Assembly: GCA_913774715.1 (NCBI GenBank)
Contig: CAJYHS010000005.1
Span: forward strand, 1 to 64,000
Direction: 5' to 3'
DNA length: 64,000 nucleotides
Source: an uncultured Siphonobacter sp.
GTDB taxonomy: Bacteria; Bacteroidota; Bacteroidia; Cytophagales; Spirosomataceae
Made by a program: the position numbers and the translations under genes. Below are positions 17,936 through 27,562 of the stretch, piece after piece. The notes below the pieces were generated by a model. The model saw only the letters and a program-made list of their open reading frames with translations. It was not told the origin of the DNA and searched no databases. The first letter of the stretch is position 1. The number at the start of each line of letters is the position of its first letter.

Positions 17936-18577
17936 TCACGAAGATAAATCGACCAAATCAGTATTTTTCTGAGACAACAAAACCTGTGAGTTTAACACAT
18001 TTTTTACGGGACCAAACGTCTTTCGGTGCCAATCGGTCACTCCGAACTCGCTTAAAGCCTTTAAATGCCTCGGTGTTGGATATCCCACGTTCTGCTCCCA
18101 GCCGTACATTGGATACTGCAAAGACAGCTTTTCCATAAACTCATCCCGATACGTTTTAGCTAACACAGAAGCTGCTGCGATGGACGCATAGATTCCGTCT
18201 CCTTTAACAATACAGGTATGAGGAATCATAGGATAAGGTGTGAATCGGTTTCCATCAACCAGTAGATGCTCAGGAAGGGCTTTAAGTTGCTCCACTGCCC
18301 GATGCATGGCTAAATAACTTGCTTTAGCAATATTAAACCGATCAATTTCAGCGACGCTTGCTTCCGCAATCACCCATGCTATCGCTTCTTTTTCAATTTC
18401 CAACCGTAGCTGATCACGTTGTGATCGTTTTAGCTGCTTGGAATCGTTTAAAAACTCATTACTATAATCTTTTGGTAGAATTACCGCAGCTGCCACTACT
18501 GGGCCTGCCAGACATCCCCTACCTACTTCATCAAGCCCTGCTTCAACGCTTGCCCAATGATAGAATGACTTTAACAT
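17936..18577 (-). CDS. rnhB: Ribonuclease HII
   Basis: RNase HII cuts RNA-DNA hybrids and removes single ribonucleotides misincorporated in DNA. The 213-residue protein has the active-site motif GLDEVGRG with D16 and E17, the LLVDGN aspartate near residue 108 and the [14 protein letters not shown] block with the remaining acidic residue. It also has the [11 protein letters not shown] segment that precedes the C-terminal helix. The gene appears to be single, with gaps of about 210 bases on both sides. Confidence 0.95.
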
Positions 18578-23625: not shown

Positions 23626-23655
23626 AAGAGCATGCTTTCAAGCATGCTCTTTTCT
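23626..23655 (+). terminator. Terminator after nuoC
   Basis: A perfect 12-bp stem (23626-23637 with 23640-23651) has a very short loop and is followed by TTCTGTT. It lies between the convergent nuoC and helicase genes. Confidence 0.75.
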
Positions 23656-23656
23656 G

Positions 23657-26600
23657 TTAGTGATGAGCTCTTCTGTTTTTCCACCATTCGCGGCTCCAGA
23701 TCCTTCGGTAAGGCCAGCCTTTTCGTTGTAAACTGATGGGGAAATACGCGTGTGCTTCTTTCGAACTCAAGCTCTGGTAATACAGGTCATCATCGGTTAA
23801 TATCAAACCTTGGTAAACGGTCCTTTCTTTTTCAACCAAATCCGAAAAGGGTAACTCTTTAACCCAGGAAGAATGTGTTTTCTCAAGCTGATCTTTTAAC
23901 AACTGACTCGATTTCAAATCTTTAGTGAGCAGCGGCTTCGGAAGATAATGTCCAGCAGATACGTTACGGGCAAAATTTAAATAGGCTTTTAAAAGACGAG
24001 GGCCTTCATTTACAGCTTCTTCTACCTTCAGTTGTTCGGGCCACAAACTGGTAACTACATATATTCGTTGTCGAGCCCGGGTAATGGCCACATTCAGGCG
24101 GTTCTCCCCTCCTACTTGATTCAAAGAACCAAAGTGTGCTGAAACCTTGCCCTCTTCATTAGGAGCGTAACCGATAGAGAAAATAATTACATCCCGTTCG
24201 TCTCCCTGTACATTCTCAAGGTTTTTAATAAATAGCGGCTCCGCTTTATCTGAAATACTATCCAGTTTATCTTCCAATAACCGCTGTTGAGGAGAATTAA
24301 AGGTAACAATTCCCACCGAGAGCTCAGGTTCCTGCTGAGTTAAAGTCTGAATCAGGTTAACTACGGTATCTGCTTCGGGCTCATTTCGTTGTTCTTTCCA
24401 GGCTCCTTCTACTTTTATGTAATGAATGGCTCCTGCATTCCTATTCATTTCCCGGAAATCAGGCAATAACTGTAAACGATTCTCATAAAAGTGCTGATTG
24501 GAAAACTCAATCAACTCAAGGGAGCGACTACGGTAATGCCCCTGTAAAAGCACCTGCGGTAAATACCGGGCCATCAAATCAAGCAAACTGGTTACCTCTA
24601 ATTCAGGAATATCATCGGTTTCTTCTTCGAAACGGACACGATATAAATCAGAGGGCTGTAACTGCTTGCTATCTCCGGCAATAACTACCTGCTTTCCCCG
24701 AAACATGGCAGGTAAGCCCTGCTCGGCAAAACATTGGGAAGCTTCATCGAAAATAACCAGATCAAATAGCGGTTGATTGGTTAATGGAAAGATCGCTGAA
24801 ACGGTTTCGGGCGAGGCTAACCAACAAGGTACCAGCGTTAAGATTTCATCCGTAAAATGACTGAATACCTGCCTAACGGGCCAGATCAGTCGTTTTTTTG
24901 TAACCTGATGTTTCAAGTCTCGATACGTAGTCACGTTTCCCAATCGATTCATTTCGAGAGATTGGTAGGTTTGCTCCCGTAGCTGTTTTCGACCGATCTC
25001 TCCGGCTAATTCCTGCTTTCGAATCACGGCCTGCTGTAACTCTTCTTCCATCTGCTGCATTTTCATGCCGGACACGCTTCGCAACAGAGGTGACTTTAAT
25101 TCTAAATGTTCAATCCAGGCTAGTTTCAGTGAGTTAATAAATGTTTCCTGTAATGGATTCCCCGTTCCTCTTTTGATTACCTGCTTTTCGGCTAAAGTCA
25201 GTTGACTCTGAAGCGTATCAAATTCCTGAAGTAATTCAAAATCAGTAGATAAGAAATCTAACAGTACTTTCAACTGGTGAGGAGAGGAATGAATAATATA
25301 ATCAATCTGCGTATGCGTCAGGTATTTTTTCCAGACCTCCTGTTTTTGGTTAAGTCGATGGAATTGCTGCAACATTTGATGCACTTTATCGGCAAAACCG
25401 ATCTGATTTGTTTCGGCATGAAATCGATATACCTCCCCAATTAAAGAATGAGATGTACGAATGTGCTCATACTGGATGGAAGCTTCTTTCACCTTTGAGC
25501 TAACCTGTTCCCACTGCTGCAACGTTTGCGACCATTCTTCCTGTTTAATCTTTATTTGTAATGGTTCAGCCCATTGCTCCATGAGCCATTCGACTTCGAG
25601 TCGATTTAAGATCAGCTTTCTGAATTTCTGTAAATCTTCTAAACTCAGTGTTAATCCGTATGCTTCAGCCTGCCTTTGGAGACTTTCTTTATTCTGAAAG
25701 AATAACCACTTGAATAACGACGCCCTGGCCTGAATTGCACTTTCAAGCTTCTCCAGAAAAGGACGTAGTTCTGAGCTGTTGAAACTTCTGTGAGCCAATC
25801 CCTCATTCTGCAGCTTTTCAATTTGGAGACGCACGGGCCAGTCCTTCCAGTCGGCAATCTGGCGATAGTGAAGCCTTCGAACCCAGATTTCCTGCTCAGC
25901 AGTCAAAACCTTAACCAGGTAATTCAGCTCTTTCTCTTGACTTTGCAGCGTTTGTACTTCTACCCAGCTCACATTCCTTCCTAACCAGGGTTGAAAACTC
26001 TGCGTAATCTGCTCAAGGGTTTCGGGAATTTCGAGTATGACCGATTTAAAAGCAGCCACATCCTGAAACGTAAATGCACTAAAATCCTTTCGATCCTGCC
26101 AGGGGTGATCCTGATGAATTCGGAGCTGATATTCCTCGTATCGCTTGAATTTCTGCGTTGTTTCTTCGAGCTTGTGAAAATGAAAATACTGGTATAAGTC
26201 CTGAAGCTCAATCCGGGGGTTTTCCAGATCTGAAGTCAGGTAAAGTTCTTTGGGAGATAGTCCGCATTCACTAGCGTCAAAAAGGGCCTTTTTGAAATCA
26301 TCCAATTCCTGCTGGATGCGGTCGATCTGATTAGAATGCTGCGTAAATTCTCGTTCTAAGAGTATAGCATCCAAACTCGTATTCAATCGTTTGTATTCCT
26401 CAATGCGATCAATCTGATTCGTAATCTGAGTATACAAACTTTTGCGATCATGCTGAAAATCGTGCAGGTTAGCAGCGAAATCCTGCCAGTTTACCCGTGA
26501 TAATCGGTCATAAACAGTGTCTAAGGCCGCCCTTTTCTGACTCACTACCAATACTCGTTTCCCCTGAGCGGTAAAATCTGCAATAAGGTTACAAATCAGT

Positions 26601-27562
26601 TGTGACTTACCCGTGCCTGGAGGTCCCTGTACGACCAGTGATTCCCCCTTTTTCACCCTCCGAAAAGCGGCTTCCTGCGAAGCATCCATTGGAAAAGGGG
26701 TTAATATATCCGCCTCGCGTATTTTAGCCGAAAGCCGGTCTTGGGACTCAAGTTGAAACGGTGCAAAATCTTCCTCCTCCAGTTGTTGAAGTAAATTTTC
26801 ATAATCCCGAACGAGATAAGAGCCCGCCTGAGGAAAAATTCCTAAGATGGCATGGGGTAATAACCGTAATTCGCCGGGCTGCTCCGTTCGTTCCAGGTCA
26901 CTTTTCAGTAATTTTTGAAAAAACTGAAGCTGATCTTCAAATAAGTCTGAGTTATAGTTCAGCTTTAAGGGCGTGGTTTTCAACCATTCGTATAGTTCCG
27001 TTCGAAAAGACAGGGATTCTTTGGGAAAATCCTCAAAGTCTTTTTCCAAAACCTCTTCTACGACCTTTAACCCATTAAAATGGGCATAGGCCATGACTAA
27101 AGAACGATTAAGAACCAGAGGCTCATCGCGACGATCCAACACCCACTGATTCTGAGGATTGACTCGTAACCCTACGGGCCAGAAAAGTAAAGGAGCCCGA
27201 ACGACGGTCCCATCCGAAAATTTACCCTGTACCAGAGGCCAGCCGAGGTATAAATCTTCCGTTCCCCGCTCTGCCTCGATGAAATGGGCTGTTCGGGCAA
27301 TTTGCCGGAGACGACGGGATACGTCATTAACTTTTTGGTGACGCGGGTCCAGTACCTCACAGAGGGGCAAATTACTTTTACCCGCCATGCACCCTTTGAT
27401 AAGCTCGAAAGAAGAAAATCCCGAAAGAAAATCCAGTTCATGAATATCCAGAAACTGCTCCTTAGGTAAGGATAAAAGCACCAGGGAACGGTTTCTCGGA
27501 CTTAAATTAACCAGCCGCCTCTGAAAAATTCGTAAGCTATTTTTCGACCAGAAAGAATTCAT
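23657..27562 (-). CDS. DUF4011/superfamily 1 helicase with a Vsr-like C-terminal remnant (candidate defence protein)
   Basis: The 1301-residue protein opens with a DUF4011-like region (RLVNLSPRNRSLVLL, residues 16-30). It has a Walker A motif GPPGTGKS at 313-320, a Walker B/DEAD-type IFDEASQ near 937, GDSKQLQP just after it, and the late SF1 motifs near 1137-1170 (NVQGDERDVI, NVAITRARQR). About 600 mostly helical, glutamine-rich residues lie between the Walker motifs. The end (D1257-Y1262 and RIWSREWW at 1287-1294) resembles the last part of Vsr/MTES_1575-type PD-(D/E)XK nucleases, but the nuclease core is poorly kept. From memory, DUF4011-helicase-Vsr proteins form a single-gene anti-phage system (Hhe). 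The match here is inference, and general RNA/DNA helicase work remains possible. Confidence 0.75.
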   Translation of the reverse strand: MNSFWSKNSLRIFQRRLVNLSPRNRSLVLLSLPKEQFLDIHELDFLSGFSSFELIKGCMAGKSNLPLCEVLDPRHQKVNDVSRRLRQIARTAHFIEAERGTEDLYLGWPLVQGKFSDGTVVRAPLLFWPVGLRVNPQNQWVLDRRDEPLVLNRSLVMAYAHFNGLKVVEEVLEKDFEDFPKESLSFRTELYEWLKTTPLKLNYNSDLFEDQLQFFQKLLKSDLERTEQPGELRLLPHAILGIFPQAGSYLVRDYENLLQQLEEEDFAPFQLESQDRLSAKIREADILTPFPMDASQEAAFRRVKKGESLVVQGPPGTGKSQLICNLIADFTAQGKRVLVVSQKRAALDTVYDRLSRVNWQDFAANLHDFQHDRKSLYTQITNQIDRIEEYKRLNTSLDAILLEREFTQHSNQIDRIQQELDDFKKALFDASECGLSPKELYLTSDLENPRIELQDLYQYFHFHKLEETTQKFKRYEEYQLRIHQDHPWQDRKDFSAFTFQDVAAFKSVILEIPETLEQITQSFQPWLGRNVSWVEVQTLQSQEKELNYLVKVLTAEQEIWVRRLHYRQIADWKDWPVRLQIEKLQNEGLAHRSFNSSELRPFLEKLESAIQARASLFKWLFFQNKESLQRQAEAYGLTLSLEDLQKFRKLILNRLEVEWLMEQWAEPLQIKIKQEEWSQTLQQWEQVSSKVKEASIQYEHIRTSHSLIGEVYRFHAETNQIGFADKVHQMLQQFHRLNQKQEVWKKYLTHTQIDYIIHSSPHQLKVLLDFLSTDFELLQEFDTLQSQLTLAEKQVIKRGTGNPLQETFINSLKLAWIEHLELKSPLLRSVSGMKMQQMEEELQQAVIRKQELAGEIGRKQLREQTYQSLEMNRLGNVTTYRDLKHQVTKKRLIWPVRQVFSHFTDEILTLVPCWLASPETVSAIFPLTNQPLFDLVIFDEASQCFAEQGLPAMFRGKQVVIAGDSKQLQPSDLYRVRFEEETDDIPELEVTSLLDLMARYLPQVLLQGHYRSRSLELIEFSNQHFYENRLQLLPDFREMNRNAGAIHYIKVEGAWKEQRNEPEADTVVNLIQTLTQQEPELSVGIVTFNSPQQRLLEDKLDSISDKAEPLFIKNLENVQGDERDVIIFSIGYAPNEEGKVSAHFGSLNQVGGENRLNVAITRARQRIYVVTSLWPEQLKVEEAVNEGPRLLKAYLNFARNVSAGHYLPKPLLTKDLKSSQLLKDQLEKTHSSWVKELPFSDLVEKERTVYQGLILTDDDLYYQSLSSKEAHAYFPISLQRKGWPYRRIWSREWWKNRRAHH

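What the first reader, a model, noticed from the sequence alone, without database searches (positions are those of the whole stretch)
23657..27562. Stand-alone DUF4011-SF1 helicase with a Vsr-like C-terminal remnant: candidate anti-phage protein
Seen: an N-terminal DUF4011-like motif, intact Walker A (313-320) and DEAS Walker B, late SF1 motifs and a final segment with RIWSREWW that matches the tail of Vsr/MTES_1575-type nucleases. Known (from memory): proteins of DUF4011-helicase-Vsr build act as single-gene defence systems (Hhe). Inference: this gene, alone between housekeeping operons and flanked by an AT-rich spacer, is a member with a worn-down or altered nuclease. The DG-x-x-YH block seems changed to DDDLYY (1257-1262).
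Basis: partly seen in the sequence, partly recalled or inferred. Interest (0 to 1): 0.65.

Follow-up and report, generated by a model that had tools for sequence, protein, structure and literature searches.

The report
Core helicase with altered nuclease tail
A large helicase related to bacterial anti-phage proteins turns out to be a stable core gene in one group of bacteria, with an intact motor and a nuclease-like tail whose usual catalytic residues have been replaced by another strictly conserved motif, which suggests a permanent cellular role for a protein of defence kin.

Summary
In detail: 23657-27562(-) encodes a 1301-aa protein with a DUF4011 domain, an intact SF1 (Upf1/Sen1-like) helicase and a C-terminal segment related to the Vsr-like MTES_1575 nuclease. 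It is kin of the ProA/PDC-S37/Hhe anti-phage proteins, but not a patchy defence gene with a worn nuclease. Orthologues occur in 147 of 167 near-complete genomes of its family (the 20 absences lie in 4 genera) and in 195 of 292 of its order. In its genus it has one fixed locus in 6 of 6 genomes, and its divergence tracks that of its neighbours. In the same 167 genomes the long ProA/PDC-S37-type relatives reach threshold in only 12. The tail evolves as slowly as the motor. The canonical E-x-D-G pattern is L-T-D-D here: D-D in 112 of 112 distinct sequences, T in 111, E at the first position in none. Best reading: a single-copy core helicase of Cytophagales that shares ancestry with anti-phage helicase-nucleases and whose tail probably binds or senses nucleic acid rather than cutting it. 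An order-wide anti-phage role, or a rewired active site, is not excluded. No phenotype is known; the mechanism is inferred.

The parts
23657..27562 (-). 1301-aa DUF4011 / SF1 helicase / degenerate Vsr-like protein (P0001), stop codon included
27095..27328 (-). DUF4011 match (residues 79-156)
   Evidence: Pfam PF13195, E 6.3e-10
24050..26689 (-). SF1 helicase region (residues 292-1171; AAA_11 and AAA_12, with a helical stretch of about 370 residues between the two RecA parts)
   Evidence: Pfam; predicted structure and Foldseek matches to SETX, IGHMBP2, Sen1, UPF1, Aquarius, Dna2
26603..26626 (-). Walker A GPPGTGKS (residues 313-320)
   Evidence: GPPGTGKS in 91 and GPPGSGKS in 22 of 113 orthologues
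24734..24748 (-). Walker B DEASQ (residues 939-943)
   Evidence: DEASQ in 110, DESSQ in 3 of 113 orthologues
23672..23854 (-). C-terminal Vsr/MTES_1575-like domain with altered motif (residues 1237-1297)
   Evidence: sub-threshold MTES_1575; model pLDDT 90.5 for residues 1172-1301; conservation; low dN/dS
23789..23797 (-). T-D-D motif (residues 1256-1258) in place of canonical C-D-G
   Evidence: D1257 and D1258 in 112 of 112, T1256 in 111 of 112 distinct orthologues
23626..23651 (.). stem-loop between the two converging genes (11 pairs), possible shared terminator
   Evidence: six such sites were found in the region against 5.2 expected, so the site is suggestive only (it has the most pairs of the six)

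Best explanation
It is a single-copy core gene of one bacterial order (Cytophagales, judged from the names of the closest records), inherited vertically, encoding an SF1 helicase of the Upf1/Sen1/IGHMBP2 type with a DUF4011 head and a C-terminal domain of the Vsr-like MTES_1575 fold whose usual catalytic pattern has been replaced. Shown: wide and near-uniform presence, fixed locus in the genus, motor motifs intact throughout, tail conserved with a new T-D-D motif, kinship with anti-phage helicase-nucleases. Inferred: the ATP-driven motor moves along nucleic acid, and the tail clamps or recognises nucleic acid without cutting it, so that the protein works as a constitutive surveillance or clearing helicase (for example on R-loops, stalled transcription or incoming DNA) rather than as a restriction-like effector. 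Which substrate it acts on is a guess.
For: Presence: 147 of 167 genomes at least 95% complete in the family, 20 absences in four genera (g13 11 of 11, g22 7 of 8, g10 1 of 1, g30 1 of 1), 13 of the 20 in genomes of 2.5-3.2 Mb; 195 of 292 in the order. Contrast: long ProA/PDC-S37-type relatives in 12 of the same 167 and 27 of 292 in the order; in sister genus g43 the long form in 53 of 110 and the short one in 0 of 110. Vertical inheritance: same gene order in the genus (6 of 6; one contig ends early on one side), identity tracks that of 9 flanking genes over 15 genome pairs (Pearson 0.96), one clade with 100% SH-aLRT (51 rows). Motor. Tail: 0 of 112 with E at 1255, D1257 and D1258 112 of 112, W1283 and S1290 112 of 112; tail dN/dS 0.018 (G004/G001) and 0.030 (G002/G003) against 0.030 and 0.026 in the first RecA part, 0.057 and 0.055 in the second. 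Fold kin: helicase; tail. Precedent for a Vsr-like domain without nuclease activity that binds RNA: FASTKD4 (passages of PMC11879112).
Against: No experiment bears on function. D1241, D1257, D1258 and a K/R at 1268 are almost invariant, which a metal-binding, possibly catalytic site would also explain. The kin with names are anti-phage proteins, and a DUF4011 gene is reported as a core gene in every P. aeruginosa isolate beside a defence hotspot (passages of PMC10250203), so core status does not rule out defence. The gene is missing in 97 of 292 genomes of the order, so it is not indispensable. Family labels on the tree are not all single clades (Cyclobacteriaceae 5 changes, Flammeovirgaceae 5, f1 6), partly from MAG labels and long paralogues. 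The root is a midpoint, so descent from a defence protein is not shown. Foldseek gives the tail no significant PDB match (best E 1.5), and the VIA-align scores are under 8.
Confidence: 0.5

Rival explanations
1. It is an order-wide, constitutive anti-phage protein: kept in nearly all genomes because phage pressure is constant, acting by helicase-driven disruption of phage nucleic acid or by signalling, with or without cutting.
For: Closest named models are anti-phage. Long relatives above the ProA cut-off include one whose E is L and H is Y (L047 = P0004, 2216 bits against 1500), so loss of those residues occurs inside the named family too. A core DUF4011 gene is known in P. aeruginosa (passages). 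Sister genus g43 lacks the short form and often has the long one (53 of 110), and in the order 17 of 97 genomes without the short form have the long one against 10 of 195 with it (compared by hand), as if one could stand in for the other; but all 17 are in three genera of one family.
Against: Near-uniform presence, slow evolution and housekeeping neighbours are unlike the patchy long relatives in the same genomes. No recurrent defence partner next to it in 65 loci looked at (most neighbour clusters were not annotated).
Confidence: 0.3
2. The tail is an active nuclease with a rewired site: D1241, D1257 and D1258 (perhaps with H1271 and K/R1268) bind metal in place of the canonical residues.
For: D1241 110 of 112, D1257 and D1258 112 of 112, K or R at 1268 112 of 112, H at 1271 82 of 112; strong constraint on the tail.
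Against: Canonical E at 1255 (0 of 112) and the R-D pair are gone, the canonical H remains in only 23 of 112, and the domain lacks the first helix-and-hairpin part of MTES_1575: the match starts at profile position 35-36 of 96. No coordinates were at hand to see whether the acids form a pocket.
Confidence: 0.15
3. One reading: an accessory anti-phage gene with a decaying nuclease.
For: Family kinship; loss of canonical residues.
Against: Not accessory and not decaying.
Confidence: 0.05

Closest known systems
ProA / PDC-S37 (NCBIfam NF058533, PADLOC PDLC05009), DUF4011-SF1 helicase-MTES_1575-DUF3320 anti-phage proteins
   Same: DUF4011, SF1 helicase and Vsr-like order of domains; 493 bits (PDC-S37) and 529 bits (ProA) over residues 77/78-1299
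   Different: Scores far below the ProA cut-off (1500); no DUF3320; MTES_1575 below cutoff with changed motif; about 1300 aa against 1548-1951 aa in P0002 and P0004; core instead of patchy
Hhe (NCBIfam NF042953, PADLOC PDLC02194)
   Same: Helicase plus Vsr-like layout; 332 and 240 bits
   Different: Cut-off 2000 bits not met; shorter; nuclease motif changed
Short DUF4011 helicases of Bacillaceae such as Cytobacillus gottheilii (L119, P0003, 1282 aa)
   Same: Same length and layout, no DUF3320; 39% identity over the second helicase half and tail
   Different: Canonical nuclease kept: MTES_1575 121.5 bits; E-x-D-G and H in 6 of 6 Bacillaceae-type rows
Short DUF4011 helicases of uncultured Clostridia (e.g. 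L128, L129, L133)
   Same: Same layout; nuclease also departs from the canonical pattern
   Different: Different departure: E and the R-D kept, D at 1241 often S, G and H lost; T-D-D in 0 of 30 rows of that bin
RAP domain / FASTKD4 (Vsr-like RNA-binding domain)
   Same: Vsr-like fold; FASTKD4 keeps the D51 equivalent, has N in place of H69 and is reported to lack nuclease activity (passages of PMC11879112); Pfam RAP matched in 3 of 49 tail sequences, best E 0.0022
   Different: Eukaryotic organelle proteins without helicase; similarity here is weak and may be no more than a shared fold
Upf1 / Sen1-SETX / IGHMBP2 helicases
   Same: SF1 helicase core by sequence (best E 4.4e-19) and by predicted structure (best E 8.2e-12)
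   Different: No DUF4011 or Vsr-like domain named in those entries; bacterial

Membership tests
ProA (NCBIfam NF058533) | Whole-protein score at or above the curated cut-off (1500 bits) | tested here: not met
   529.4 bits; P0002 and P0004 of related genomes do meet it
ProA (NCBIfam NF058533) | DUF3320 (winged helix) after the nuclease, as in P0002 and P0004 | tested here: not met
   no DUF3320 in P0001 at E 0.001, present in P0002 and P0004
Hhe (NCBIfam NF042953) | Whole-protein score at or above the curated cut-off (2000 bits) | tested here: not met
   332.2 bits
MTES_1575 nuclease (Pfam PF18741) | Gathering score 38.2 bits | tested here: not met
   18.8 bits whole protein, 23.0 bits tail alone
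MTES_1575 nuclease (Pfam PF18741) | Canonical E-x-D-G..H block as in Bacillaceae relatives (catalytic role of these letters recalled, not tested) | tested here: not met
   E in 0 of 112, D in 112 of 112, G replaced by D in 112 of 112, H in 23 of 112
DUF4011 (Pfam PF13195) | Gathering score 22.2 bits | tested here: met
   39.7 bits
SF1 Upf1-like helicase | AAA_11 and AAA_12 with Walker A and B motifs | tested here: met
Accessory anti-phage defence gene | Patchy presence among close relatives | tested here: not met
   147 of 167 in the family, absences in four genera; long relatives 12 of 167
Anti-phage defence gene | Protection against phage | not testable with these tools
   needs plating assays
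PD-(D/E)XK / Vsr-like fold | Structural match of the tail to solved members | tested here: inconclusive
   Foldseek best E 1.5; VIA-align Z 6.9 to a T. gondii mitoribosomal chain, 5.0 and 4.8 to TnsA, 3.7 to BstEII, 3.1 to AvaII; Z under 8 may be a common arrangement

The most novel reading that the evidence does not exclude
A branch of the anti-phage DUF4011 helicase-nucleases has become a permanent housekeeping (or constitutive innate-immunity) gene of a whole bacterial order, with its Vsr nuclease turned into a conserved non-cutting T-D-D module that steers an Upf1/Sen1-like motor: a bacterial counterpart of a senataxin-type surveillance helicase with a RAP-like nucleic-acid grip.
Probability: 0.35. 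Interest if true: 0.75.

Novelty: new variant of a known kind. Interest (0 to 1): 0.55.

Why it matters
Defence-gene models such as PDC-S37 score this protein highly, yet it behaves like a core gene, so counts of defence systems in these bacteria could be inflated, or a constitutive layer of immunity is being overlooked. It offers a clean contrast, short core form against long patchy form in the same genomes, in which the change from nuclease to conserved pseudo-nuclease (or rewired nuclease) can be tested with one knock-out and two point mutants.

Tried and rejected
Decay of the nuclease: rejected on constraint and near-invariance. Mobile or plasmid-borne gene: tblastn against plasmids gave 335 records, only 1 covering 80% or more of the query (a 602-kb replicon of Bernardetia); against phages 1 record, 58% covered, 28.7% identity. 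Conserved operon partner: neighbours were compared in 68 loci, 3 of which (L102, L105, L196) gave no helicase call and were dropped; of 65, an HhH (HHH_3) gene lies directly upstream on the same strand in 18, a short-chain dehydrogenase in 10, a TerC gene in 7, and in the six genomes of the window's genus nuoC/glycosyltransferase: group-specific neighbours, no common partner.

The Bacteroidota promoter pattern (recalled) was found once in the window, away from this gene, with 1.5 expected by chance; sigma-70-like sites were fewer than in shuffles (4 against 7.5). Foldseek of the tail against PDB gave nothing significant. dN/dS of most pairs was unusable because synonymous sites were saturated; the estimates quoted come from G004/G001 (dS 0.25 over the whole gene) and G002/G003 (dS 1.77, less reliable), each on 61 tail codons. 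In one search, 2 of 174 sequences (L044, L045) were dropped because helicase motif VI was missing; the bin called 'long' there also holds two Cytophagales pieces (L105, L123) and L049, and bins were set by score, not taxonomy. In one search, rows that were partial or redundant were left out before the tree (86 rows used). In one search three matches are partial or split (G744, G763, G608).

Literature, all searches of the held library: DUF4011 gave 3 papers, PDC-S37 none, 'Hhe' with helicase and defence terms gave no paper on that system among the 15 of 81 listed, DUF3320/MTES1575/DUF559 18 papers, 15 listed, Cytophagales with core gene and helicase 5 papers, none on point from titles; some searches gave general listings. 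No description of this core form was seen in those listings; that is not proof that none exists. Read as passages only: PMC10250203, PMC11879112, PMC8190603, PMC3710099. The published tests behind the names Hhe and ProA were not seen.
Full report
What is there. The gene at 23657-27562 on the minus strand encodes 1301 aa. It carries DUF4011 (residues 79-156), the two halves of an SF1 helicase (AAA_11 from 292, AAA_12 to 1171) and a C-terminal stretch that resembles the MTES_1575 nuclease below Pfam's threshold. The gene faces nuoABC tail to tail, with a stem-loop in the 38-bp gap, and lies back to back with a glycosyltransferase gene. MTES_1575 was described as a novel Vsr-fold REase joined to an SF-I helicase and a wHTH that overlaps DUF3320 (passages of PMC3710099).

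What it resembles. PADLOC ranks PDC-S37 first (493 bits), then Hhe (240); NCBIfam ranks ProA (529 bits, cut-off 1500) and Hhe (332, cut-off 2000). Two long relatives from genomes of the same family, P0002 (1548 aa, G036) and P0004 (1951 aa, G005 of the window's own genus), meet the ProA cut-off and have full MTES_1575 and DUF3320 matches. The window protein has neither. By sequence profile and predicted structure (residues 1-1200, pLDDT 86.2, pTM 0.67; Foldseek) the motor is of the SETX/Sen1, IGHMBP2, UPF1, Aquarius, Dna2 type.

It is a core gene. With the profile of 43 orthologues, 147 of 167 genomes of the family that are at least 95% complete have it; second matches appear in 2 of these, one being a long relative (G740) and one the second piece of a split match (G608), so it is single-copy as far as that search shows. 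The 20 absences fall in four genera: 11 of 11, 7 of 8, 1 of 1 and 1 of 1. In the order 195 of 292 have a match at E <= 1e-100; 77 of the 97 genomes without it are not listed, so I cannot break all of them down by family. Among 395 genomes drawn from the phylum, the 12 that score above 1190 bits are all of the same order, and the best outside scores 471 bits with a 1937-aa frame. Named relatives of full length are Dyadobacter, Runella, Spirosoma, Pontibacter, Rufibacter, Adhaeribacter, Algoriphagus, Echinicola and others, hence my reading of the order as Cytophagales; group codes and names cannot be matched directly.

Control. A search with P0002 in the same 167 genomes finds the long type in 12, and in 27 of the 292 of the order; the search scores only a few candidates per genome, so these are lower bounds. 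In genus g43 of another family of the order the long type is in 53 of 110 and the short one in 0 of 110 at E <= 1e-100. Comparing by hand, 10 genomes have both, 185 only the short, 17 only the long (all in g43, g268 or g280 of one family) and 80 neither. The long type thus behaves like an accessory gene, the short one like a core gene; the partial exclusion could mean replacement but rests on one family.

Vertical inheritance. In the window's genus gene order around it is the same in 6 of 6 genomes (in G002 the contig ends one gene beyond on one side). Its pairwise identities follow those of 9 flanking genes (all on the nuo side) over 15 genome pairs, Pearson 0.96, Spearman 0.89 (pairs are not independent). 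On a tree of 86 rows all 51 short Cytophagales rows form one group (SH-aLRT 100, stem 0.48), with Hymenobacteraceae as one group inside it (8 rows, 100). Against a perfectly clean picture: Cyclobacteriaceae need 5 changes, Flammeovirgaceae 5 and f1 6, several through MAG labels and because f1 also holds the two long paralogues. The root is a midpoint, so whether the core form came from a defence form or the reverse is not settled.

Constraint and the altered tail. In the pair G004/G001 (dS 0.25) dN/dS is 0.115 for the gene, 0.030 and 0.057 for the two RecA parts, 0.24 for the middle, 0.18 for the linker and 0.018 for the tail (61 codons); in G002/G003 the tail gives 0.030. Over 112 distinct orthologues, position 1255, E in canonical relatives, is L in 95 and E in none; T1256 111, D1257 112, D1258 112 (canonical G), W1283 112, S1290 112, D1241 110, K or R at 1268 112; the canonical H is H in 23, Y in 43, F in 32. 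All 6 Bacillaceae-type rows have E-x-D-G and H; of the 30 rows in the Firmicutes/archaea bin 4 do, and none has T-D-D; in the bin of long proteins 9 of 24 have E-x-D-G and H, and the only T-D-D row there is a Cytophagales fragment (L105). Clostridial short forms keep E and R-D but often lose D1241, G and H, so the site has been altered more than once. Walker A is GPPGTGKS or GPPGSGKS in 113 of 113 and Walker B DEASQ or DESSQ in 113 of 113: the motor stays intact while the nuclease pattern does not.

Structure of the tail. Residues 1172-1301 are modelled with pLDDT 90.5, pTM 0.74, with a strand-strand-helix-strand-helix core. Foldseek finds nothing significant in the PDB. Among its own candidates VIA-align gives Z 6.9 for a T. 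gondii mitoribosomal protein, 5.0 and 4.8 for TnsA, 3.7 for BstEII, 3.1 for AvaII, most of them nucleases of the PD-(D/E)XK kind (class recalled), but below the level at which such scores are safe. Pfam matches MTES_1575 in 36 of 49 tail sequences and RAP in 3 of 49 at E <= 0.01; the 49 include 9 from outside the order. FASTKD4 shows that a Vsr-like RAP domain can lose nuclease activity and serve RNA binding (passages).

Function. I commit to a constitutive helicase with a non-cutting nucleic-acid-binding tail (0.5). Shown are the architecture, presence, constraint and the change of motif. Inferred are that the tail does not cut, that the role is not primarily antiviral, and the kind of substrate. 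Core immunity (0.3) and a rewired nuclease (0.15) remain open; the report of a DUF4011 core gene in every P. aeruginosa isolate (passages) shows that core status is not unique to this order.

Noticed in passing
L047 (G005:C6), L062-L064, L075: Long proteins of the ProA/PDC-S37 type also show a changed nuclease block (E to L/V/I, H to Y, D-G and D-R-E kept), so altered active sites recur within this defence family; L047 scores above the ProA cut-off.
   Followed up: partly
L125, L128-L131, L133-L140 (Clostridia): Short DUF4011 helicases of uncultured Clostridia have another altered form of the nuclease block (D1241 equivalent often S, G and H lost, E and R-D kept), apparently independent of the Cytophagales change.
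   Followed up: partly
genus g43: One genus lacks the short form in 110 of 110 genomes and has the long ProA/PDC-S37 type in 53 of 110, which may be replacement or chance.
   Followed up: partly
L085-L090, L092, L094, L098, L099, L103, L104, L106-L108, L110, L111, L113: In 18 of 65 loci a helix-hairpin-helix (HHH_3) protein gene lies directly upstream of the helicase on the same strand.
   Followed up: partly
17939-18577: An RNase HII gene lies in the block of genes conserved around the helicase in the genus, eight genes away; no functional link is shown.
   Followed up: no
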